A DNA stretch of 51,356 nucleotides. It comes from Xenococcaceae cyanobacterium MO_167.B52. GTDB lineage: Bacteria; Cyanobacteriota; Cyanobacteriia; Cyanobacteriales; Xenococcaceae. The notes beneath the pieces were generated by a model. That model was not told the origin of the DNA. It saw nothing but the letters and a program-made list of their open reading frames with translations, and did no database searches. The stretch lies in NCBI GenBank assembly GCA_030065315.1, contig JASJDB010000001.1:1-51356 (forward strand), in the 5' to 3' direction. Numbering within the stretch: the first letter of the stretch is position 1; each line of letters starts with the position of its first letter. Below are positions 1 to 11,010 of the stretch, in pieces. Both the position numbers and the translations under genes were made by a program.

Positions 1-696
1 GTAGCAGAAAATGCCAACCAAGCAGAACAGATTGTGGATGATACCTATCAGACTATTGTCAACAGTACTGACAATATGGATTTAACTGTAAACAGTATTC
101 TGAATCTGCGGACTACAGTAGGTGAGACAGCTAAAAAAATGAAGCGTTTAGGAGAATCTTCCCAGAAAATTTCCCAAGCTGTCTCTTTTATTGAAGAAAT
201 TGCCCTAAGAACTAATATATTAGCGATTAACGCTACTGTTGAGGCTGGACGCGCAGGGGAATACGGACAAGGTTTCACTATCGTTGCGGAACAAGTCGCT
301 GGTTTATCAGAACAATGTGCAGCAGCAACCAAAGAAATTGCCAGTATTGTCGCAGCAATTCAAGGGGAAACTCAGGAGGTCAACCAAGCTATGGAATCAG
401 GTACAGCCCAGGTGGTAGAAACTACCCGCCTAGTAGAATCTACCAAAGAAAGTTTAGGACTAGTTCTAGAAAAATCCCAAGAAATTAACCTACTGATGAG
501 TTCTATTTCTGAATCAACCGTATCTCAGGCAAAGACTTCCCAAAATGTTACTAACCTGATGCAAAAAATTGCCAACTTATCTGAAACCACATCGAAATCT
601 TCCAAGGAAGTAGCACAATCAATTGTTGAAACGGCTCAAGTAGCTGAAAAATTGGAGTCTGCTGTAGCTCAATTTAAAGTAGCTGAATCATACTAA
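1..696 (+). CDS. Methyl-accepting chemotaxis protein, C-terminal part (5' end outside window)
   Basis: The reading frame is open from base 1, so this is the 3' end of a longer gene. It encodes the cytoplasmic coiled-coil signalling hairpin of a chemoreceptor. The hairpin tip is readable (LAINATVEAGRAGEYGQGF, about codons 75-95) and is the part that contacts CheA and CheW in this family. The remainder is nearly identical, in DNA and protein, to the C-terminus of the next gene (2439-3128). The two genes are therefore a tandem duplication. The input domain lies outside the window. With the following receptor and CheA it forms a same-strand taxis cluster, likely controlling twitching motility or phototaxis (inferred from cyanobacterial tax operons). 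Confidence 0.93.
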   Translation, partial: VAENANQAEQIVDDTYQTIVNSTDNMDLTVNSILNLRTTVGETAKKMKRLGESSQKISQAVSFIEEIALRTNILAINATVEAGRAGEYGQGFTIVAEQVAGLSEQCAAATKEIASIVAAIQGETQEVNQAMESGTAQVVETTRLVESTKESLGLVLEKSQEINLLMSSISESTVSQAKTSQNVTNLMQKIANLSETTSKSSKEVAQSIVETAQVAEKLESAVAQFKVAESY

Positions 697-827
697 ATTA
701 TTTATTCCCCCCACTATTAATAATAGTAAAAAAATAAGTTAAACAGAATATTTTCTTGACCAAAACTTTTTTTACTTTAAATAGTTGTTATTAAATCAAT
801 ATATCCCCCTATAAACTCTGAATTATT

Positions 828-3128
828 ATGATTAACAAACAAAAAGCTACTAGGTTACAATTAAAAGCAAATCCTCAATATAAATATCATTTAATTTTTG
901 ACCTTATAGAATCAATCTTATTTAAATATACTGGGCGTTTTAGATCGAGGATATTGTTATTAAGTTTGAGTAGCTTAATTTTACCAACTTTAGTTGTTCC
1001 ATTACTTCCTAATTCTTGGGAGCAAAAAATTTTAACTCAAATATCGATAACTGCTCAAGCTCAACAATCTCAAGAACTAGCAACTCAAAAAACCGTTCTT
1101 AAAATTGGTGTTTTAGCAAAACGAGGAACAGAAAAAGCTTTGAGTCAATGGCAACCATTAGCAGAATATTTGTCTACTAATATTCCAGAATATACATTTC
1201 AAATAGTACCTCTGAATTTTGAGGAAATTTATCAAGCTGTTGAAGACAATGGCATAGATTTTATTATTGCCAACTCTGGGATGTATGTAGATTTTGAAGC
1301 CAATTATGGAGCAAATCGAATTGCTACTCTAAAAAACCTGAGATTGGGCAATCCCTATACTATTTTCGGGGGAGTAATTTTAGTAAAAGCCGACCGCCAA
1401 GATATTAACACTTTAAAAGATTTAAAAGGTAAAACTTTTATGGCGGTAAACGAAACCTCTTTGGGTGGTTGGCAAATGGCTTGGGGTGTTCTTCAAGAAG
1501 AAGGCATCGATCCTAAAAAACATTTTCAGGAGTTAAGTTTTGGTAATACACACGATACTGTAGTAACAGCAGTACTTAAAGGCGAGGTTGATGCGGGGAC
1601 AGTGAGAACTGACACCCTAGAACGTATGTCAGCAGAAGGCAAAATTAAACTAGCAGACTTTAAGATTATCAATAAGCAACAAGACCCCAGTGGTAAGTTC
1701 CCTTTTGTTCATAGTACTCCCTTGTATCCTGAGTGGCCCTTTGCTGTAGCCAAAGATGTTCCTATAGAAATATCAGAAAAAGTATCGGCTGCTTTACTCA
1801 GTATGCCGTCTGATAGTCCAGCAGCTATTGCTGCTAAATCTGAAGGTTGGACTATTCCCTTCAACTATCGACCCGTACATGACTTATTTCTCGATCTCAA
1901 TATTGGTCCTTATGAGGACTTAGGAGAAATTACTCTAACGCAGCTTATTCAAAAACTTTGGATTTTTATTGTAGGAGCTTTATTAGGTTTAGCTGCTCTA
2001 ACAATTTATTTCCAAAAACGCAGTTTGGCTCAACAAACACTAAACCAACAAGCCTTAAACGAACTAAATAAATCTCTAGAAAAAAATGCCGAAGAGCAGC
2101 GTCAACAAAAAGAACAACAACGCCGAGAAAAAGAACAGCTAGAAACAGCTATTTATACCCTCATAGATGAAGTTTCCGATGCCACAGACGGGGATTTAAC
2201 CGTTAGAGCTAACCTAGACTCGATGGAACTTAGTACTGTTGCCGATTTATTTAATGCCATTATTGATAACTTGCAAGAAATCGCCGTTGAAGCCAAACAG
2301 TCCACTAGCCAAGTTGGTTCTTCTTTAAAGCAAAATGAAGTAGCGATTCGGACTTTAGCAGAGCAGGCTATTGCTGAAGCTCAAGAAACTCGCGATACCT
2401 TGATGTCTGTCGAACAAATGTCCCAATCGATTCAGGCAGTAGCAGAAAATGCCAACCAAGCAGAACAGATTGTGGATGATACCTATCAGACTATTGTCAA
2501 CAGTACTGACAATATGGATTTAACTGTAAACAGTATTCTGAATCTGCGGACTACAGTAGGTGAGACAGCTAATAAAATGAAGCATTTAGGAGAATCTTCC
2601 CAGAAAATATCCCAAGCTGTCTCTTTTATTGAAGAAATTGCCCTAAAAACCAATGTATTGGCGATTAATGCTAGTGCTGAGGCAGATCGAGCAGGAGAAT
2701 ACGGACAAGGATTTGCGATCGTTGCCGAACAAGTTGGTGCATTAGCAAAACAATGTGCAGCAGCAACTAAAGAAATTGCCAGTATTGTCGCAGCAATTCA
2801 AGGGGAAACTCAGGAGGTCAACCAAGCTATGGAATCAGGTACAGCCCAGGTGGTAGAAACCACCCGCCTAGTAGAATCTACCAAAGAAAGTTTAGGACTA
2901 GTTCTAGAAAAATCCCAAGAAATTAACCTTCTGATGAGTTCTATTTCTGAATCAACCGTATCTCAGGCAAAGACTTCCCAAAATGTGACTAACCTGATGC
3001 AAAAAATTGCCAACTTATCTGAAACCACATCGAAATCTTCTAAGGAAGTAGCACAATCAATTGTTGAAACGGCTCAAGTAGCCCAAAAACTAGAATCTAC
3101 CGTAGCTCAGTTTAAAGTAGCTAATTAG
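828..3128 (+). CDS. Chemoreceptor with PhnD-like periplasmic binding domain
   Basis: This 766-residue receptor has an N-terminal membrane segment (about 41-60), then a PhnD/phosphonate-type substrate-binding domain (about 90-355, beginning LKIGVLAKRG). A second membrane helix (377-396) follows, then a charged coiled coil, a HAMP-like linker and a methyl-accepting signalling domain (about 500-766). The tip motif LAINASAEADRAGEYGQGF is present. PhnD-like domains bind phosphonates, phosphite or similar anions, but the ligand here is unknown. It presumably signals to the CheA that starts 38 bases downstream. Its 3' third duplicates the preceding gene, and its stop codon lies in a short ATTAGTC heptamer repeat. 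An alternative name is phosphate/phosphite/phosphonate-binding MCP. Confidence 0.92.
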   Translation: MINKQKATRLQLKANPQYKYHLIFDLIESILFKYTGRFRSRILLLSLSSLILPTLVVPLLPNSWEQKILTQISITAQAQQSQELATQKTVLKIGVLAKRGTEKALSQWQPLAEYLSTNIPEYTFQIVPLNFEEIYQAVEDNGIDFIIANSGMYVDFEANYGANRIATLKNLRLGNPYTIFGGVILVKADRQDINTLKDLKGKTFMAVNETSLGGWQMAWGVLQEEGIDPKKHFQELSFGNTHDTVVTAVLKGEVDAGTVRTDTLERMSAEGKIKLADFKIINKQQDPSGKFPFVHSTPLYPEWPFAVAKDVPIEISEKVSAALLSMPSDSPAAIAAKSEGWTIPFNYRPVHDLFLDLNIGPYEDLGEITLTQLIQKLWIFIVGALLGLAALTIYFQKRSLAQQTLNQQALNELNKSLEKNAEEQRQQKEQQRREKEQLETAIYTLIDEVSDATDGDLTVRANLDSMELSTVADLFNAIIDNLQEIAVEAKQSTSQVGSSLKQNEVAIRTLAEQAIAEAQETRDTLMSVEQMSQSIQAVAENANQAEQIVDDTYQTIVNSTDNMDLTVNSILNLRTTVGETANKMKHLGESSQKISQAVSFIEEIALKTNVLAINASAEADRAGEYGQGFAIVAEQVGALAKQCAAATKEIASIVAAIQGETQEVNQAMESGTAQVVETTRLVESTKESLGLVLEKSQEINLLMSSISESTVSQAKTSQNVTNLMQKIANLSETTSKSSKEVAQSIVETAQVAQKLESTVAQFKVAN

Positions 3129-3148
3129 TCATTAGTCATTAGTCATTC
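3123..3148 (+). repeat. ATTAGTC heptamer tandem repeat
   Basis: About three and a half copies of the heptamer ATTAGTC lie between the receptor and cheA. The receptor stop codon TAG is part of the first unit. This is a short tandemly repeated repetitive sequence of the kind common in cyanobacterial genomes. Confidence 0.85.
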
Positions 3149-3165
3149 AAAATTCGTAACTCAAA

Positions 3166-6099
3166 ATGGATACAGAACAACAAATTCGCCTGAATTTTCT
3201 CGATGAGGCTGAAGAATATTTTGATCGCATGGAATCTACCCTTTTAGGATTAGCTGATACTACCATTAATCTAGAAAAGGTAGACCTTGTCTTGCGTGCT
3301 GCTCATTCTATTAAAGGAGGGGCTGGGATGATGGGATTTGTTACTTTGAGCAAGGTTGCCCATCGTCTCGAAGATTTTTTCAAAATTTTGCGGGTTCGTT
3401 ATGCTTCTAGTCAAATTGCAACGGAAATAGAAACCCTTTTACTACAAAGTGTAGATTCCTTACGCCACATTGCAGAGTTGAATCGTCAAGGACTAGAGGT
3501 AATAGATTCTGATATTAGCGATCTTGATGAGATACTGGTAGTGGAGCGCACTCAACCCATTTTTGATAAGTTACAACAGCATCTGGGAGATTTAGAAGCT
3601 GAAGACGAAGATGCTTTAATGGCACAAAATGAAGATTTCGATCCAGCTTTACTTGTCTTTGAAGAAGGTGTCGATACGGTTTTAGACCGCTTTGAAACTC
3701 AGTTAAAAGAACTAAGAATTGGAGAACTAGCTGAAGAATTAGCTACCATTGCCGAGGAATTAATCGGTTTTGGCAAGATGGCAAATCTTCAACCCTTTAC
3801 CCAACTTTGTCAGTCGATCCAACAACAAGCTGAAACCCTATCGAATCAGGAGATTGAACCTTTAGCGGAGCAAGCTTTAAAAACTTGGAGGAGATCCCAC
3901 GCTTTAGTTTTAAGAGGAAGTATTGAGAAATTACCCTCTTGTCTGGAAGGTAGTAACTTGGGTAATACTGCTACTATTCAATCCAAAACTAAAGTAGATA
4001 TCGACCCGTTAGAGGATAGTTCTTTAGAACTGAGTGGCTTGCAATCAGCATTTGAAATAGCAGAAACTAAAGTAGATATCGACCCGTTAGAGGATAGTTC
4101 TTTAGAACTGAGTGGCTTGCAATCAGCATTTGAGATTGCTGAAGAAAGACAATCTACAATTCCACAAGAAGCCGAAAAGCCTTCACCATCTTTCTTACCA
4201 CAAAGAACTCCATCGGTAGACAAAATCGAAAAGATGGTAAGAGTACCTGCATCTCAAATCAAACAATTTAACACCTTGTTTGAACAACTGATTTTAAATC
4301 GCAACAGTATCAATGTGCGATTACAACAATTAGAAAAGGTCATTTCCTTGATGACTCAAAGAATGTCTCAAATGGAAAATTCTAATACTCAACTAAAACA
4401 ATGGTATGGTCGCGCCTCCCTAGAAGGGTTTCTGACTAACAAAGAACAAGCAATAACCAATGTAGTTAGTCCCTTGAGAGGTAATCGAGATCGCTTTGAT
4501 AGCTTAGAAATGGATACTTATAGTGACATTCATCTGATCTGTCAAGAACAAATAGAAACCATCGTTCAACTGCAAGAAGTCGCTACAGATATCAAGCTAG
4601 GAATACAAGACATTAATCAATCAGTTCGCGACCTTCATTACACTACCAAATCGATGCAAGGTAACGTTACTCGTACTCAAATGTTACCCTTTTCTGAAGT
4701 GGTCAAACGTTTTCCCAGAGTAATTCGTGATCTTAATCTTCAATTTAATAAACAGGTTAACCTGAAAATTATCGGTGAAAATACCCTTCTAGACCGGAGT
4801 GCAATTGAAGCTCTAAGCGATCCTTTAATGCATCTGTTACGTAATGCTTTTGACCACGGTATAGAAGACTCCGAAACTAGAATTAAGGCAGGTAAACCCC
4901 CATCAGGAACAATTACCATACAAGCCAAGAATCAAGTTACTTACACTGTAATTACCCTTAGCGACGATGGTGGTGGTATTTCTCTGGATAAAATACGCGA
5001 TCGCGTGGTAACTATGGGTATTCCTAAATCTGATATTAACAAGATACCAGAAGCCGAACTACTTGAATTTATCTTTGAGCCTGGATTTAGTACCGCCAAA
5101 CAAGTTACACAACTTTCGGGTAGAGGAGTGGGAATGGATGTGGTTAAGACTAATCTGCAAGAGATTCGTGGTGATGTCAAAGTAGCTACTAAACCAGGAA
5201 AAGGTACAACATTTACCCTGAGAATTCCTTTTACTTTATCGATTTTAAGGGTAGCAGTAATCGAACAAGCTGGTATTATTATTGCCATTCCTGCTAATAG
5301 TATTCGAGAGCTTGTACCTTTAAAGCCAGAACTAATAAAAACCTCAGAAAACACTAAAAATCTACTTTGGAATCAGACAGAAATTCCTTTAGTAGAAATC
5401 GAAAAAACTTTAGTTTATCGACGTTTACATCAAAATCTCAATTTAACTGGTAATCCGATTATAGATAAAACTATGGCTATAGTAATCGGAGATGAAAAAT
5501 TCTCGGCAGCACTACAAATTAGTCATTTTTGGTATGAGCAAGAATCTACCATTAGACCTATTGATAGCCCTATTCCTTTACCGCCAGGTGTTATTAGCTC
5601 CGTAGTTTTCGGTGATGGTAAAGTTATTCCTTTAGTTGATCCTACATTACTAGCCAATGAATGCTTAGAAAAACAATTTATTAATGATTCCTCGAATAAA
5701 AATCTTACAACAACTCACAATCTATCTGCCACTAAAACTATTTTGGTAGTAGATGATTCCATTAATGTTCGTCGCTATCTCAGTTTAACCCTAGAAAAAG
5801 CTGGGTATCGGGTAGAGCAAGCCAAAGATGGTCAAGAAGCTGTAGATAAATTGCTTGGTGGACTATCTGTACAAGCTGTTATTTGTGATATTGAAATGCC
5901 TCGACTAGATGGTTATGGGGTTCTCGAAGAAATCAAAGAAAAAGCAGAATTTGCCAAACTTCCCATAGCAATGTTAACTTCTCGTAGTAACGAAAAACAT
6001 CGCAAACTAGCAATTAATTTAGGAGCTTCAGCTTATTTTTCTAAGCCCTATAATGAACAAGAATTATTAAATAAACTAGCCACAATGGTAATGTCATAA
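3166..6099 (+). CDS. CheA-type hybrid histidine kinase with C-terminal receiver
   Basis: The 977-residue protein is a taxis kinase. An Hpt domain at the N-terminus contains the phospho-acceptor His47 in AAHSIKGGAGMMGF. A long linker follows, then the CheA dimerisation and HATPase domains (LRNAFDHGIED N-box; DDGGGI and GRGVGMDVV motifs), a CheW-like domain, and a receiver with phospho-acceptor Asp908 in CDIEMP. This architecture matches PixL/HmpE-type CheA proteins of cyanobacterial phototaxis and motility operons. The linker contains a perfect or near-perfect 78-base duplication (3988-4143; 26 residues twice). Expression with the upstream receptors is likely, since only 37 bases separate the genes. 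The stimulus is not deducible. Confidence 0.95.
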   Translation: MDTEQQIRLNFLDEAEEYFDRMESTLLGLADTTINLEKVDLVLRAAHSIKGGAGMMGFVTLSKVAHRLEDFFKILRVRYASSQIATEIETLLLQSVDSLRHIAELNRQGLEVIDSDISDLDEILVVERTQPIFDKLQQHLGDLEAEDEDALMAQNEDFDPALLVFEEGVDTVLDRFETQLKELRIGELAEELATIAEELIGFGKMANLQPFTQLCQSIQQQAETLSNQEIEPLAEQALKTWRRSHALVLRGSIEKLPSCLEGSNLGNTATIQSKTKVDIDPLEDSSLELSGLQSAFEIAETKVDIDPLEDSSLELSGLQSAFEIAEERQSTIPQEAEKPSPSFLPQRTPSVDKIEKMVRVPASQIKQFNTLFEQLILNRNSINVRLQQLEKVISLMTQRMSQMENSNTQLKQWYGRASLEGFLTNKEQAITNVVSPLRGNRDRFDSLEMDTYSDIHLICQEQIETIVQLQEVATDIKLGIQDINQSVRDLHYTTKSMQGNVTRTQMLPFSEVVKRFPRVIRDLNLQFNKQVNLKIIGENTLLDRSAIEALSDPLMHLLRNAFDHGIEDSETRIKAGKPPSGTITIQAKNQVTYTVITLSDDGGGISLDKIRDRVVTMGIPKSDINKIPEAELLEFIFEPGFSTAKQVTQLSGRGVGMDVVKTNLQEIRGDVKVATKPGKGTTFTLRIPFTLSILRVAVIEQAGIIIAIPANSIRELVPLKPELIKTSENTKNLLWNQTEIPLVEIEKTLVYRRLHQNLNLTGNPIIDKTMAIVIGDEKFSAALQISHFWYEQESTIRPIDSPIPLPPGVISSVVFGDGKVIPLVDPTLLANECLEKQFINDSSNKNLTTTHNLSATKTILVVDDSINVRRYLSLTLEKAGYRVEQAKDGQEAVDKLLGGLSVQAVICDIEMPRLDGYGVLEEIKEKAEFAKLPIAMLTSRSNEKHRKLAINLGASAYFSKPYNEQELLNKLATMVMS
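3988..4143 (+). repeat. 78-bp in-frame tandem duplication inside cheA
   Basis: Two adjacent copies (3988-4065 and 4066-4143) encode the same 26-residue acidic segment beginning TKVDIDPLEDSS. They differ at only a few third positions near the end. The duplication lengthens the linker between the Hpt domain and the kinase core without changing frame. Confidence 0.95.
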
Positions 6100-6253
6100 A
6101 GGTTTTGTTATGGCTTTAATCAATTGATAACTCAATACGATATTTCCAGGGAAATTACGATATTTCCCGAAGCAATGCTGCTTTATTCTCTTATTATACA
6201 GATTAAGGGATAATAGTTAGCTTAATAGGGTGGAATCATCCTGGTAGAATGTA

Positions 6254-8389
6254 ATGATGTCTAGTTTTAATTCTCTAGAAGCAGCTTTAAAACACTTTTT
6301 TGGCTATGATCGCTTTAGGGTAGGACAAAAGGAAATTATCGAAGATGCGATCGCAGGTAAAGATTTACTGATTATAATGCCTACAGGTGGGGGCAAGTCT
6401 CTTTGTTTCCAGCTACCAGCTTTGCTCAAATCGGGTTTAACTATTGTTGTCTCTCCTTTGATTGCTTTGATGCAAGATCAGGTAGATGCCCTACAAGATA
6501 ATGGTATAGGTGCAACTTTTCTTAATAGTACTCTATCCTATGAGGAAGAAAGATCGCGTCAACAAGCAATTCTTACAGGTAAAATTAAGTTACTTTATGT
6601 GGCTCCCGAAAGATTATTAAATTCTCGCTTTAGTGGGTTTCTTTGCCATATTTCGGAAAATATTGGAGTAAACGCGATCGCAATTGATGAAGCGCACTGT
6701 GTTTCAGAATGGGGACACGATTTTCGTCCTGAATACCGCAAACTGAAACAACTACGCCAACAATATTCCCAGATACCTATATTAGCCCTAACTGCTACTG
6801 CCACCAAAAGAGTCCAACAAGATATTATTCAACAGTTGGAATTACGCCAACCTACCACCCATCTTGCCAGTTTTAACCGTCCCAATCTCCATTACGAAGT
6901 CCAACCGAAAGAAAAAAACAGCTACTATCAATTACTAAAAGCGATTCGTCAAGAGTCAGGATCGGGCATAGTTTATTGTCTCAGTCGTCGTCGAGTAGAT
7001 GAAATTGCTTTTAAACTCAACAATGATGGCATAGAAGCTTTACCTTATCATGCGGGAATGGAACCAGAAGCGAGATCCCAGAATCAAACTCGTTTTCTCA
7101 GAGATGATATTAGGGTAATTGTGGCAACTATTGCTTTTGGGATGGGAATCAATAAACCCGATGTGCGGTTTGTCTTTCACTACGATATTCCTAAAAGTTT
7201 AGAAAGCTTTTATCAAGAGTCAGGAAGAGCGGGAAGAGATGGAGAAAATGCTAAATCTATTCTCTTTTTCAGCTTTGGAGATATCAAAAAAGTTGACTAT
7301 CTTATCGAACAAAAACCTGATGTTAGCGAACAAAGAATTGCCCGTCAACAACTCAATCAAGTAATCGATTATGCAGAAGGAACTGATTGTCGTCGTACCA
7401 TTATTTTGCGTTATTTTGGCGAAAGATTTTCAGGAAATTGTGGAAAGTGTGACAATTGTTTAAATCCTAAACCCATAGAAGATTGGACAATCGAAGCCCA
7501 AAAGTTTCTCTCTTGTGTTGCTCGTTGTCGAGAAAGATTCGGGATGACTCATGTTATAGATGTGCTGAGAGGTTCACGGAAAAAGAAAGTCGAACAATAT
7601 GGACATCATCTTCTATCTACCTACGGTATTGGTAAGGATAGAAGTATTGCAGAGTGGAAAATGTTAGGGCGTTCTCTGCTTCATCAAGGCTTATTAGGAG
7701 AAACTAATGATGGCTATCGCATTCTCAGATTAAATAAGCGTAGTTGGGAGATTCTTAAAAAGCAACGTTCGGTAGAAATTGCAGTTGATATTAAACATAA
7801 ATCTACTGGTGACAAAGCTTATAATCCTCGCCAAGCAGAAGCAGAAGTTCTCTACGACAAACTCAAAATCTTACGCAAACAAGTTGCTGATTTACAGTCT
7901 GTTCCACCCTATGTAATTTTTGCTGACTCTAGCTTGAAATTAATGGCACAACTCCAACCTCAAAATACTAAACAGTTTAGTAATATTTCTGGAGTTAATA
8001 GTTATAAATTACAACAGTATGGCGAAAAATTCTTATCTGTAATTCAAGATTTTGTGCGATCGCAAGAATTGCCTAAAAAATTACCAGGAAAAAGTAATAT
8101 GCAGACTTTACAGCTTCATCAACAAGGTTTGAGTATCGCAGAAATCGCAGAAGCAAGAGGTTTAACCGTAAGTACCATTTGTACTCATCTGGGAGAATTA
8201 TTAGAGATGAATCAACCAGTAGCTTTAAACAAATTAATCGATCCTAGTATTCAGAAAGTCATTTCAGAAGCTATTGAAAAACATGGAGATAAATCTCTTA
8301 AAACTCTCAAAGAAGCATTGGGAGAAAGTTACAGTTACAACGAAATTAAATTAGTAGTGGGATGGTGGCGCAGTCAGGGAAACATTTAA
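6254..8389 (+). CDS. recQ: ATP-dependent DNA helicase RecQ
   Basis: This 711-residue protein unwinds DNA 3' to 5' in recombination and replication repair. Visible motifs are Walker A (MPTGGGKSLC, about residue 43), the DEAH box in IDEAHCVSEWGHDFRPEY, helicase motif VI (QESGRAGRDG), and the RecQ-specific zinc site (cysteines in TDCRRTI and GNCGKCDNC). A winged helix and an HRDC domain (about 535-610) follow. The C-terminus adds a helix-turn-helix (GLSIAEIAEARGLTVSTI) seen in longer RecQ proteins. The length is close to that expected for RecQ with this extension. Translation may begin at either of two adjacent ATG codons (6254 or 6257). The gene is monocistronic, and heptamer repeats follow its stop codon. 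Confidence 0.96.
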   Translation: MMSSFNSLEAALKHFFGYDRFRVGQKEIIEDAIAGKDLLIIMPTGGGKSLCFQLPALLKSGLTIVVSPLIALMQDQVDALQDNGIGATFLNSTLSYEEERSRQQAILTGKIKLLYVAPERLLNSRFSGFLCHISENIGVNAIAIDEAHCVSEWGHDFRPEYRKLKQLRQQYSQIPILALTATATKRVQQDIIQQLELRQPTTHLASFNRPNLHYEVQPKEKNSYYQLLKAIRQESGSGIVYCLSRRRVDEIAFKLNNDGIEALPYHAGMEPEARSQNQTRFLRDDIRVIVATIAFGMGINKPDVRFVFHYDIPKSLESFYQESGRAGRDGENAKSILFFSFGDIKKVDYLIEQKPDVSEQRIARQQLNQVIDYAEGTDCRRTIILRYFGERFSGNCGKCDNCLNPKPIEDWTIEAQKFLSCVARCRERFGMTHVIDVLRGSRKKKVEQYGHHLLSTYGIGKDRSIAEWKMLGRSLLHQGLLGETNDGYRILRLNKRSWEILKKQRSVEIAVDIKHKSTGDKAYNPRQAEAEVLYDKLKILRKQVADLQSVPPYVIFADSSLKLMAQLQPQNTKQFSNISGVNSYKLQQYGEKFLSVIQDFVRSQELPKKLPGKSNMQTLQLHQQGLSIAEIAEARGLTVSTICTHLGELLEMNQPVALNKLIDPSIQKVISEAIEKHGDKSLKTLKEALGESYSYNEIKLVVGWWRSQGNI

Positions 8390-8463
8390 CATTTATCATT
8401 TATCATTTAACATTTATCATTTAACATTTATCATTTATCATTTATCATTTATCATTTATCATT
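8389..8463 (+). repeat. CATTTAT/CATTTAA heptamer tandem repeat
   Basis: About ten heptamers, CATTTAT interspersed with CATTTAA, fill the gap between convergent recQ and the sensor kinase. The last codons and stop of the kinase (residues NDK and stop) are read from this repeat on the opposite strand. Confidence 0.92.
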
Positions 8464-10652
8464 GCAGGAATAGTAAAGTAAAAAGTGCTTCCTTCTCCAT
8501 AGACACTATTTACCCAAATTGTTCCCTGATGCTGTTCTACTATATTGCGACAAATAGCCAGTCCTAAACCTGTACCTCCTTTACGTTTGGAGTCAGAAGG
8601 ATCGACTTGTTTGAACCTTTCAAAAATACTTTCTAACTTATCTGAGGGTATACCCCTACCATGATCTTCAACTGCGAAAAGAATGCTCTGATTTTCCTGA
8701 TCTTGCTTTACTGCACTTAAGGTAATATTGCTGCTGGGTGCAGAAAATTTGATTGCATTACTCAGAAGATTAGTTAATACTTGAATTATGCGATCGCTGT
8801 CCCCTTGAAAGTTAAGATCTGATTCAAGAATTTGAATGTCAATTTTGGCTTTATTTGCTAGGATTTGCACCCGATCCATAGCACGTAACATCAATTCTTT
8901 GCTATTTACCTGTTGCTGAATCAATTCAACTGTGCCAGATTCTAGATATTCTAGTTCCAACAAATCGTTAACTAGCTTTACTAAATGTTTGGCACTGCTG
9001 TTGCCAATATCTAGTAAATGTTTGCCTTTTTGACTTTTAGGATCAACTTTATCTTCAGCTAATAGGCTCAATACACCACGAATCGCAGTTAGAGGGGTAC
9101 GTAATTCATGACTTACCACAGAAACAAATTCATCTTTCTTCTTTTGAATTGCCTTTTGCTCGGTAATATCTTCCCCAATACATATTACCCCTGTAGATTG
9201 TCCTTGAGTATTACGTAATTGGGTTGAATTCCAAGCAATAATTTTTTCAGTTTTTGATTTGGGAAAAATTACTGTTTGTTGATGAGAAAGGGAGCTATTA
9301 AAACTAGGTTGAAGTATATTATTGTGTATGGCTTTTGCTTCTTCTTGCCCTTGAATAGGTAAAAAGTCAGTAAACCAGTTTTTTCCTGTTATTTCACTCA
9401 GATTGTAGTCAGCTAGTTTTAGTAGGAAAGGATTAGCGTAGTTTATGTTGCCTTGAGTATCAAGACTCATGACTAATAACCCCACATTTTCTAGTAAGCT
9501 ACGCCAGCGTCTTTCAGATTCTTTTAAACTTGCTTCACTCTTTTGCAGGGCAATTTGAGCCTTTTCTTTGCGAGTCAATTCTTTCTGCAACAAATTGTAA
9601 GCATTTTGCAACTCTTCTGTGCGTTGAAGTACTTTGACTTCTAGTTCACTTTTAGCCTGTTTCAGTTCAATTTCTGCTAGTTTGTAAGCGGTGATGTCTT
9701 CTGCAATACCCAAGATATGTTCGGGTTGATGGAGTTCATTATAAATGGGAATTTTAATGATTCTGATAATTTTATGTTCGGGTTGTCCTTCATAAATAGA
9801 CTCTTGAGGTATTTCTATTAAATTTCCTTTCCTGATAACTTCTTGATCTTGTTGGTTAAATCTTTCGGCTTGAGCTAGAGGAAAATAATCATAGACAGTT
9901 TTGCCTAAAGCTTCTTGAGCCTCCAAACCTAATAATTTTTCTGTAGCAGGATTCCATAACTGAAATTTACCAAAGTTTTCGGCATGAGCATCTTTAACAA
10001 ATACTGCCACAGGAAGATGCTCAATAATAGTTTGCAAAAATTGCCGAGTTTGCTGATTTTGTTGCTCTGCTAGTTTCCTTTGTCTCAGTTCTTGATAATT
10101 TCTATTAATTAGTTCTGCCTGTTGAATTGCGATCGCAACTTGGTTTCCAATCTGTTTGATGCAGTTAAAGTCAGATTTTTGCCACTGTCGAGGCTCTTGG
10201 CAATGATGAGCAATTAGCAATCCCCAGAGCTGATTATTTTCTTCTGGTTCAACTCGCTCACCTGATTTTGGCAGTAGAATAGGTGCTACTAAATTTGCCT
10301 TGATATCAAAGCTTTCTAAAAACTCTTGGTGACACTCATCGATATTACCACTACTCACATTTGCGATCGCTGTTACCTCACCCTGTCGATATTTAAGAGT
10401 CCAAGATTCTTCAAAACAAGGGTCTTTGATAATACTATTGATCAATGACCAGCGATCTTCACTAACTGATTCTACTGTAACGATACCACTCCAGTCTGGT
10501 TCAAAACGATAAACAATTACGCGATCGCACCTTAGTAGCTCTCTTAATCCATCAACTGTTGCTTGTAAGATATCCGACAAATTTAGGGATTGCCGAATCT
10601 TGAGAGCTACAGTAGCAATAAGACGATTAGTTTCTTGTTCTGATGAAGCCAT
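8445..10652 (-). CDS. Sensor histidine kinase with DXCF-type cyanobacteriochrome GAF domain
   Basis: 735 residues. Domain order: GAF (about 15-180), PAS (about 205-325), coiled coil, PAS (about 380-500), HisKA (phospho-His515 in SVVSHELRTP), HATPase (about 610-730, with VEDHGRGIP and GGTGLGL). The GAF domain has DPCF at 77-80 and a second Cys-His pair at 107-108 (DECHQEFLESF), followed by KANLVAPIL and LWGLLIAHHC. The 28-residue spacing of Cys79 and Cys107 is that of DXCF cyanobacteriochromes such as TePixJ, where both cysteines link the bilin. I infer a blue- or violet-absorbing photoreceptor kinase; its response regulator is not adjacent. The C-terminal tail lies in heptamer repeats. It could also be a non-bilin GAF kinase if the pigment is not bound. 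Confidence 0.93.
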   Translation of the reverse strand: MASSEQETNRLIATVALKIRQSLNLSDILQATVDGLRELLRCDRVIVYRFEPDWSGIVTVESVSEDRWSLINSIIKDPCFEESWTLKYRQGEVTAIANVSSGNIDECHQEFLESFDIKANLVAPILLPKSGERVEPEENNQLWGLLIAHHCQEPRQWQKSDFNCIKQIGNQVAIAIQQAELINRNYQELRQRKLAEQQNQQTRQFLQTIIEHLPVAVFVKDAHAENFGKFQLWNPATEKLLGLEAQEALGKTVYDYFPLAQAERFNQQDQEVIRKGNLIEIPQESIYEGQPEHKIIRIIKIPIYNELHQPEHILGIAEDITAYKLAEIELKQAKSELEVKVLQRTEELQNAYNLLQKELTRKEKAQIALQKSEASLKESERRWRSLLENVGLLVMSLDTQGNINYANPFLLKLADYNLSEITGKNWFTDFLPIQGQEEAKAIHNNILQPSFNSSLSHQQTVIFPKSKTEKIIAWNSTQLRNTQGQSTGVICIGEDITEQKAIQKKKDEFVSVVSHELRTPLTAIRGVLSLLAEDKVDPKSQKGKHLLDIGNSSAKHLVKLVNDLLELEYLESGTVELIQQQVNSKELMLRAMDRVQILANKAKIDIQILESDLNFQGDSDRIIQVLTNLLSNAIKFSAPSSNITLSAVKQDQENQSILFAVEDHGRGIPSDKLESIFERFKQVDPSDSKRKGGTGLGLAICRNIVEQHQGTIWVNSVYGEGSTFYFTIPAMINDK

Positions 10653-11010
10653 GACAATGGTTTTGCCTAAGAACTTTTCGGTTAATTACGGTGCTGCTAA
10701 GTTATTAGTTCCTCAACAATGCTAGAACTTTCCCAGTAAAACAATCAATTAAGGTTTAAGGGAACAGACAATAGAACATTACAAACGTTTTTTAGCTCTC
10801 GATGTTTTCTTGAGTTAATTGAATGTACCTCACCTATTTGACACAGGCTATATCTATCTATTTTTTAATGATAATTTGGATTCTATTTCTATCCCTTGGT
10901 TTTTATTTAGGTATATAATTCTCAGGATAAAGACTTTAATTAAGTTTTACTAATTTCAGAGATTATTGGTTATATATCGTAATATTTGTTCATTAAAAAT
11001 GAGTTTGTTC
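10653..11010. other. Intergenic region, no gene recognised
   Basis: AT-rich DNA upstream of the photoreceptor kinase and downstream of the 350-residue gene. I see no open frame of note, no tRNA and no strong hairpin. It should hold the promoter of the kinase (read leftwards), but no convincing -10/-35 pair stands out. Confidence 0.5.

What the first reader, a model, noticed from the sequence alone, without database searches (positions are those of the whole stretch)
1..3128. Tandem chemoreceptors differing almost only at the kinase-contacting tip
The 3' parts of the two receptors (1-696 and 2439-3134) are almost identical, except for a block around 207-320 (2645-2758) which covers the hairpin tip that binds CheA/CheW. 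Such a pattern is the reverse of usual conservation: the tip is normally the most conserved part.
Basis: partly seen in the sequence, partly recalled or inferred. Interest (0 to 1): 0.5.

Follow-up and report, generated by a model that had tools for sequence, protein, structure and literature searches.

The report
Twin chemoreceptors told apart by tips
Two neighbouring chemoreceptor genes in a marine cyanobacterium have exchanged DNA until their signalling rods became almost the same, except at the tip that should touch the kinase, and related species keep the same two kinds of tip apart.

Summary
Copy 1 (1-696) and copy 2 (2439-3128) are 96-98% identical in the flanks and 82% in 199-330, the hairpin tip. 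The reading needs changing: the tip is not evolving faster, the flanks have been homogenised. A sister genome holds both receptors on one contig, differing 16-25% all along the domain. Against it, copy 2 here carries copy-1 sequence in two tracts (2127-2645, 2769-3082) but its own tip and 3' end: a gene-conversion mosaic, copy 1 to copy 2. The contig starts inside the repeat; the rest of receptor 1 is on another contig, in a Pil-type operon (PatA/PilG-PilH-CheW-MCP1-MCP2-CheA).

It generalises. Ten genomes of the family have this two-receptor arrangement. In the eight besides this genome and its sister, between-genome receptor-1/receptor-2 identity sits in the same tip block (nucleotides, amino acids, silent codons: 1 of 128 label swaps each) and is absent from the outer domain (63 of 128). 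Second receptors lose Val at Tsr-384 (9 of 10; first receptors 0 of 10) and gain Asp/Glu/His at Tsr-387 (9 of 10; 0 of 10). I propose that the tip is the protected, identity-giving part of a freely recombining domain. The functional step (trimer sorting or kinase coupling) is inferred.

The parts
1..696 (+). 3' part (231 codons) of receptor 1 (first receptor of the operon; 818 aa in all, the rest on contig C292). Tip IALRTNILAINATVEAGRAGEYGQGFTIVAEQVAGLSEQ
   Evidence: Pfam MCPsignal E 2.2e-33; C292:8961-9040 overlaps window 1-80 exactly; sister genome has the whole gene on one contig
828..3128 (+). receptor 2 (766 aa): periplasmic phosphonate-binding-type (PhnD-like) domain, membrane helix, MCP signalling domain. 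Tip IALKTNVLAINASAEADRAGEYGQGFAIVAEQVGALAKQ
   Evidence: Pfam Phosphonate-bd E 1e-48 (residues 93-329) and MCPsignal E 4e-33; the membrane helix is read by eye from the translation
2127..2645 (+). converted tract A in receptor 2: receptor-1 sequence with few leftovers (type 2 at -246, -219, -183, -60 in copy-1 coordinates)
   Evidence: informative sites against the sister genome
2646..2768 (+). unconverted tip block in receptor 2 (copy-1 coordinates 208-330): receptor-2 type mostly kept
   Evidence: Tsr alignment
2769..3082 (+). converted tract B in receptor 2: receptor-1 sequence
3083..3128 (+). 3' end of receptor 2, receptor-2 type mostly kept
3166..6099 (+). CheA of the operon with a C-terminal receiver (977 aa); the one kinase gene next to both receptors
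   Evidence: Pfam Hpt, HATPase_c, CheW, Response_reg; same gene order in relatives

Best explanation
Receptors 1 and 2 are tandem MCPs of one Pil-type chemosensory operon (PatA/PilG-like, PilH-like, CheW, MCP1, MCP2, CheA) in a Xenococcaceae cyanobacterium. SHOWN: gene conversion from a receptor-1-type allele overwrote the signalling domain of receptor 2 on both sides of the tip, leaving the old receptor-2 tip (and 3' end) in place. SHOWN: in the family, the tip is where the first and second receptors of this operon keep separate identities across genomes, also in silent codon positions, while the outer parts carry no such identity. INFERRED: recombination between the two genes is frequent, and conversions running through the tip are removed by selection because the two tips do different work. 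The proposed work is to set which receptor dimers pack together in trimers of dimers, or how each couples to the shared CheA/CheW. The second tip changes residues at or next to the trimer interface (Tsr 384 Val to Ala, 387 Gly to Asp/Glu/His, often 408 Glu to Lys) but keeps Glu385, Arg388 and Glu391.
For: Mosaic: at 178 sites where the sister genome's two receptors differ and own receptor 1 has the receptor-1 base, own receptor 2 is type 1 at 136, type 2 at 35, neither at 7, in 35 runs with one run of 52 type-1 sites; 0 of 20,000 shuffles have so few runs or so long a run. Own-1/own-2 identity by region is 0.963, 0.985, 0.821 (tip), 0.987, 0.787, against 0.840, 0.823, 0.754, 0.825, 0.766 in the sister. 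Layout: same gene order in ten genomes (in the sister the contig ends before CheA). Class test (only between-genome comparisons; labels swapped within genomes; 8 genomes, own and sister left out): excess between-class divergence at the tip nt 0.030, aa 0.058, silent 0.030, each 1 of 128; outer domain nt -0.0001, 63 of 128. The best 44-codon block of a whole-domain scan starts at codon 172; the a-priori block from the window starts at 170. Same result with own, sister, a third copy or G001 added. Tsr384 not Val: second receptors 9 of 10, first 0 of 10; Tsr387 D/E/H: 9 of 10 against 0 of 10; 8 of 8 receptors outside a tandem pair have Val384. AEADRAGEYG at DNA level with up to 1 mismatch: 7 of 388 genomes of the order, all in this family and all second receptors. 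Not saturation: flank codon identity at aa-identical sites (0.595) exceeds the tip's (0.506) between first receptors.
Against: The dip of within-genome identity at the tip is strong only here. In the normalised within-genome test the tip is less homogenised than the rest in 7 of 9 genomes by nt (sign p 0.18) but only 5 of 9 at silent sites. Forcing the eight second-type tips into one clade is not rejected by the tip data (p-AU 0.434), but forcing same-genome tips together is not rejected either (p-AU 0.053 to 0.27): 44 codons are few. All 8 of 8 tested blocks of the domain reject the tree of the remainder, so mosaicism is everywhere, not a property of the tip. Exceptions: the second receptor of G007 has Gly387, that of G009 has Val384. 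In one genome an unconverted island of about 120 bp in about 940 bp would fall on the tip by chance roughly one time in eight (my arithmetic). No functional data exist.
Confidence: 0.72

Rival explanations
1. Neutral patchwork: gene conversion is frequent and random along the domain, and the tip of this pair was left out by luck; nothing protects it.
For: Mosaicism is pervasive, all 8 of 8 blocks are incongruent with the rest; only this genome shows strong homogenisation with a spared tip; a chance of about one in eight for a single island.
Against: In eight other genomes class identity is confined to the same block, also silently; the class residues recur in second receptors whose sensor domains differ.
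Confidence: 0.2
2. Convergence: second receptors arose repeatedly by fresh tandem duplication and each evolved the same altered tip under selection, with no old shared tip.
For: Flank trees group receptors of one genome (G001, G004, G009, G018); seven tips with the AEA(D/E)R motif need 7 changes on the flank tree.
Against: Silent codon positions of the tip carry the class signal too (1 of 128), which amino-acid convergence alone would not give; sister-genome receptors differ 16-25% along the whole domain.
Confidence: 0.15
3. Assembly artefact: a metagenome assembler mixed reads of the two copies, or of two strains.
For: The genome is fragmented (449 contigs, 78.93% complete) and the contig breaks inside the repeat; blocks of the operon are 100% identical to the sister genome and others 67-95%.
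Confidence: 0.08
4. Ordinary MCP variability: two receptors with a slightly different tip and no functional meaning.
For: The core E-A-x-R-A-G-E-Y-G-x-G-F is intact in both copies.
Against: Val384 is lost in 9 of 10 second and 0 of 10 first receptors (Fisher p 0.00012), and 15 of 16 receptors whose tips were read outside the family keep V-E-A.
Confidence: 0.15

Closest known systems
Pil-type (type IV pilus) chemosensory operons of cyanobacteria, pilG-pilH-pilI-pilJ-pilL / hmp loci (names and gene order recalled; HmpD and PilJ seen only as search terms in a listing)
   Same: PatA/PilG-like regulator, PilH-like regulator, CheW, MCP, CheA-receiver in the same order
   Different: A second MCP, sometimes a third, between MCP1 and CheA, with its own tip class; here its sensor is PhnD-like
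PctA/PctB/PctC paralogous chemoreceptors of Pseudomonas (PMC6974571, abstract start and passages read)
   Same: Neighbouring paralogous receptors with near-identical signalling domains and divergent sensor domains
   Different: There the signalling domain is reported as essentially intact after duplication; here the tip is the part that diverges and the rest was homogenised
CheV-linked receptors of Enterobacteriales, McpC group (PMC4742279, passages read)
   Same: A receptor subset told apart by residues of the signalling domain, proposed to fit another adaptor
   Different: There one position within the adaptor-binding region (406) stands out; here 384, 387 and partly 408 do, in tandem genes of one operon
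Gene conversion between tandem paralogues (general process; my knowledge)
   Same: Mosaic with sharp borders and low silent divergence in the tracts
   Different: The unconverted island coincides with the protein-protein contact site, and the same site carries paralogue identity in other genomes

Membership tests
MCP signalling-domain chemoreceptors | MCPsignal domain over the curated cut-off | tested here: met
   PF00015 115-116 bits, cut-off 34.6, both copies
MCP signalling-domain chemoreceptors | Conserved hairpin tip with Glu385, Arg388, Glu391 (Tsr numbering) | tested here: met
   ungapped alignment to Tsr chains; residue roles: 385/388 ionic lock from PMC8144572, the rest recalled
Pil-type chemosensory operon | gene order PilG/PatA, PilH, CheW, MCP, CheA-receiver | tested here: met
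   own C292 plus window, and the listed relatives
Pil-type chemosensory operon | control of type IV pilus motility | not testable with these tools
   no functional data
Gene-conversion mosaic | blocks of one paralogue's sequence inside the other, against an unconverted relative | tested here: met
Gene-conversion mosaic | same mosaic in reads or an independent isolate of the same species | not testable with these tools
   no reads; no second genome of the species found
Receptors segregated by length (heptad) class | different length of the signalling domain | tested here: not met
   333 codons align without any gap in all 38 receptors
CheV-linked receptor class | a dedicated CheV or second adaptor for the odd receptor | tested here: inconclusive
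   19 CheW-like matches in the genome, none next to receptor 2 except its CheA; CheV architecture not checked one by one

The most novel reading that the evidence does not exclude
The hairpin tip acts as an identity tag for receptors that share one operon and one kinase gene. Paralogous receptors recombine freely along the rest of the signalling domain, but selection removes conversions through the tip, because tip class decides which dimers form trimers together or how they drive the kinase. Concerted evolution with a protected contact site would make the receptor's partner-choice residues readable from sequence.
Probability: 0.4. Interest if true: 0.75.

Novelty: new variant of a known kind. 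Interest (0 to 1): 0.55.

Why it matters
The tip is taken to be nearly invariant so that receptors of all kinds can mix in one array. One study of paralogous receptors (PMC6974571, passages read) reports that the signalling domain stays essentially intact after duplication. Here is a family in which the tip is the part that keeps two paralogues apart while the rest is homogenised or has lost its identity. If selection maintains this, a handful of residues (Tsr 384, 387, 408) become direct candidates for receptor sorting or kinase-coupling specificity, testable by small swaps in a culturable cyanobacterium or in E. coli Tsr.

Tried and rejected
Second CheA for receptor 1: not found between the receptors. 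Upstream of receptor 1 come CheW, PilH-like and PatA-like genes; a separate paralogous operon with its own CheA lies on C183. Positive selection on the tip: rejected, dN/dS about 0.2 in the block. Saturation of the flanks as the reason for missing class signal: rejected. A general excess of within-genome homogenisation outside the tip: not significant. Tip trees and AU tests: too little signal in 44 codons. Block-by-block incongruence: found in all 8 blocks, so not tip-specific; a block's own best tree is favoured in such a test. Sorting by receptor length: rejected, no gaps. Literature: searches for chemoreceptors with gene conversion, concerted evolution, homologous recombination with hairpin tip and pathway specificity with cytoplasmic tip listed no paper whose title or abstract start describes this pattern; only open-licence papers are held. 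No structure was predicted; the tip was placed by sequence alignment to solved Tsr structures.

Rows dropped before counts: the P1/P2 tests use the genomes with the layout CheW-MCP-MCP-CheA. G001_C459 was left out at first and, because its layout differs (MCP-PilH-CheW-MCP-CheA), also from the final test; with it added the tip result stays (1 to 2 of 256 swaps; 1 to 2 of 512). G022's first receptor was dropped as a fragment and added back. For G004, with three receptors, the middle one was used as second; the third gives the same result. Eight PhnD-MCPs of another operon were left out of the 30-row and 31-row trees. Tips outside the family were read only where my pattern caught them: 16 receptors there; the pattern missed the tip in G013, G016, G017 (family) and G044. 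In G121, outside the family, residue 387 is His beside Val384.

Full report
WHAT IS THERE. Its nearest relative in the searches, G002, has a contig (C384) of the same length and match position as JASJDF010000190.1, MAG Xenococcaceae cyanobacterium MO_188.B19. Position 1 lies inside an MCP gene. The last 80 bases of contig C292 equal window 1-80, and joining them gives receptor 1: 818 aa, with a HAMP domain and an MCP signalling domain. Receptor 2 (828-3128) has a phosphonate-binding-type periplasmic domain and an MCP signalling domain. CheA with receiver follows at 3166-6099. Upstream on C292 come PatA/PilG-like, PilH-like and CheW genes.

THE OBSERVATION. Confirmed: 43 mismatches in 690, 24 of them in 199-330; 0 of 20,000 random placements pack as many into 124 bp. 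The block has 10 amino-acid and 11 silent codon differences, dN 0.115, dS 0.578. The flanks have dN 0.006, dS 0.079. High silent divergence in the block means the block is old, not fast. The last 46 bases form a second unlike patch.

HOW IT AROSE. In G002 both receptors lie on one contig and differ along the whole domain: identities 0.840, 0.823, 0.754 (tip), 0.825, 0.766 by region. At the 178 sites that tell G002's two receptors apart and where own receptor 1 is of type 1, own receptor 2 is type 1 at 136, type 2 at 35, neither at 7. Type 2 is concentrated in the tip (209-310, 330) and the 3' end (646-687), with a few leftovers in the first tract and a few type-1 bases inside the tip (240, 243, 301, 306, 312; at four of these five the type-1 base is also the commonest in the other receptors, so the sister may be the one that changed). 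0 of 20,000 shuffles have so few runs. So sequence of receptor-1 type overwrote receptor 2 on either side of the tip. The tracts differ from present receptor 1 by about 2%, with some bases found in neither sister copy, so this is not an assembler's copy and not a very recent event. Whether the donor was the neighbour gene or a receptor-1 allele from another cell cannot be told: stretches of this operon are 100% identical between the two species while other stretches are 67-95%, and the next genes (window 6200-10700) are 91%, which points to exchange between the species as well.

DOES IT GENERALISE? Among 27 family genomes searched, ten have CheW followed by tandem MCPs in the stretches I fetched (G000, G002, G004 with three MCPs, G005, G007, G009, G012, G014, G018, G022); CheA follows in nine and the G002 contig ends before it. 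Sensors of the second receptor differ: Phosphonate-bd in G000, G002, G005, G007, G012 (by BLAST; Pfam for G000, G007, G012), Cache-like or no Pfam sensor in the others scanned. The signalling domains of all 38 receptors collected align without a gap over 333 codons. I then asked where in the domain the position class (first or second) shows between genomes, never comparing within one genome, and swapped the labels within genomes as control. With own and sister genomes left out (8 genomes): tip block, defined beforehand from the window, excess between-class divergence nt 0.030, aa 0.058, silent codon differences 0.030, each the highest of 128 swaps. Adjoining parts: nt 0.0097 (1 of 128), aa 0.019 (1 of 128), silent 0.007 (22 of 128). 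Outer domain: nt -0.0001 (63 of 128), aa 0.0036 (14 of 128), silent -0.0028 (92 of 128). A scan of all 44-codon blocks peaks at codon 172 by nt and 176 by silent sites; the window's block starts at 170 (all). Adding own, sister, G001 or the third G004 copy leaves this in place.

THE TIP CLASSES. Alignment to Tsr (query residue + 351) places the class residues at Tsr 374, 377, 383, 384, 387, 397 and 408. Residue 384 is not Val in 9 of 10 second and 0 of 10 first receptors; 387 is Asp/Glu/His in 9 of 10 against 0 of 10; 8 of 8 receptors outside a tandem pair have Val384, five of them Gly387 and three Arg387. A DNA pattern for AEADRAGEYG, one mismatch allowed, hits 7 of 388 genomes of the order, each a second receptor of this family. 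Outside the family 15 of 16 receptors whose tips were read have V-E-A at 384-386. Positions homologous to Tsr 374, 377, 385 and 388 are inter-dimer contacts of the trimer in a published model (PMC8144572, figure legend passage; the offset of 30 is taken from the two pairs the legend equates). That 384 belongs to the same set is recalled. Trimer contacts and CheA/CheW determinants both lie near the hairpin tip (PMC4692393, passages).

WHAT SPEAKS AGAINST. Within-genome homogenisation sparing the tip is strong only here; across nine genomes it is 7 of 9 by nt (p 0.18), 5 of 9 at silent sites. Tip trees are poorly resolved and AU tests do not reject alternatives (p 0.053 to 0.43). All 8 of 8 blocks of the domain reject the tree of the rest, so recombination is everywhere; the tip is special for carrying class identity, not for being mosaic. 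Two second receptors break the residue rule at one position each (G007, G009), and in G007 the two tips are each other's nearest, as if converted.

MECHANISM. Shown: mosaic in this genome; class identity concentrated at the tip in the family. Inferred: frequent conversion, with selection against conversions through the tip. Proposed function, not shown: the second tip alters trimer packing or coupling to the shared CheA/CheW while keeping Glu385, Arg388 and Glu391. Both receptors have the same signalling-domain length, so sorting by array height (as described for other bacteria in PMC6759762, passages) cannot easily separate them; the tip could.

RELATION TO KNOWN SYSTEMS. As receptors and operon these are members of known kinds. 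The evolutionary pattern departs from the statement that the signalling domain remains essentially intact upon duplication, made for Pseudomonas paralogues (PMC6974571, passages). The nearest parallel is the CheV-linked receptor group of Enterobacteriales, with one distinguishing position in the adaptor-binding region (PMC4742279, passages).

Noticed in passing
window 8384-8463: AT-rich array of 7-base units (CATTTAT/CATTTAA) between recQ and a histidine kinase; the search gave 42 matches in the own genome and many in three relatives, with no fold. It resembles the heptamer repeats of cyanobacteria (recalled).
   Followed up: partly
window 3124-3146: Three copies of a TCATTAG-like heptamer directly at and after the stop of receptor 2, before CheA.
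   Followed up: no
L158 (G165:C94) 1066-5626: The one tandem pair seen outside the family: the first receptor has a tip that lacks four residues including the Glu385 equivalent, the second a standard tip. Again tandem receptors differ at the tip, but in the other position.
   Followed up: no
L056 (G002:C213) 1486-3795 and relatives in L139-L145: PhnD-like sensors also occur on MCPs of another, more distant class (tip VEAARAGELG), suggesting that this sensor domain moves between receptor classes.
   Followed up: partly
C292 (L023) and L055: The operon is a patchwork between two species: blocks of 100% identity next to the CheW region at 67-79% identity, suggesting recent exchange of receptor 1 between species.
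   Followed up: partly
L024 135-8089: A second, paralogous PatA-PilH-CheW-MCP-CheA operon in the same genome with tip VEARRAGQYG.
   Followed up: partly
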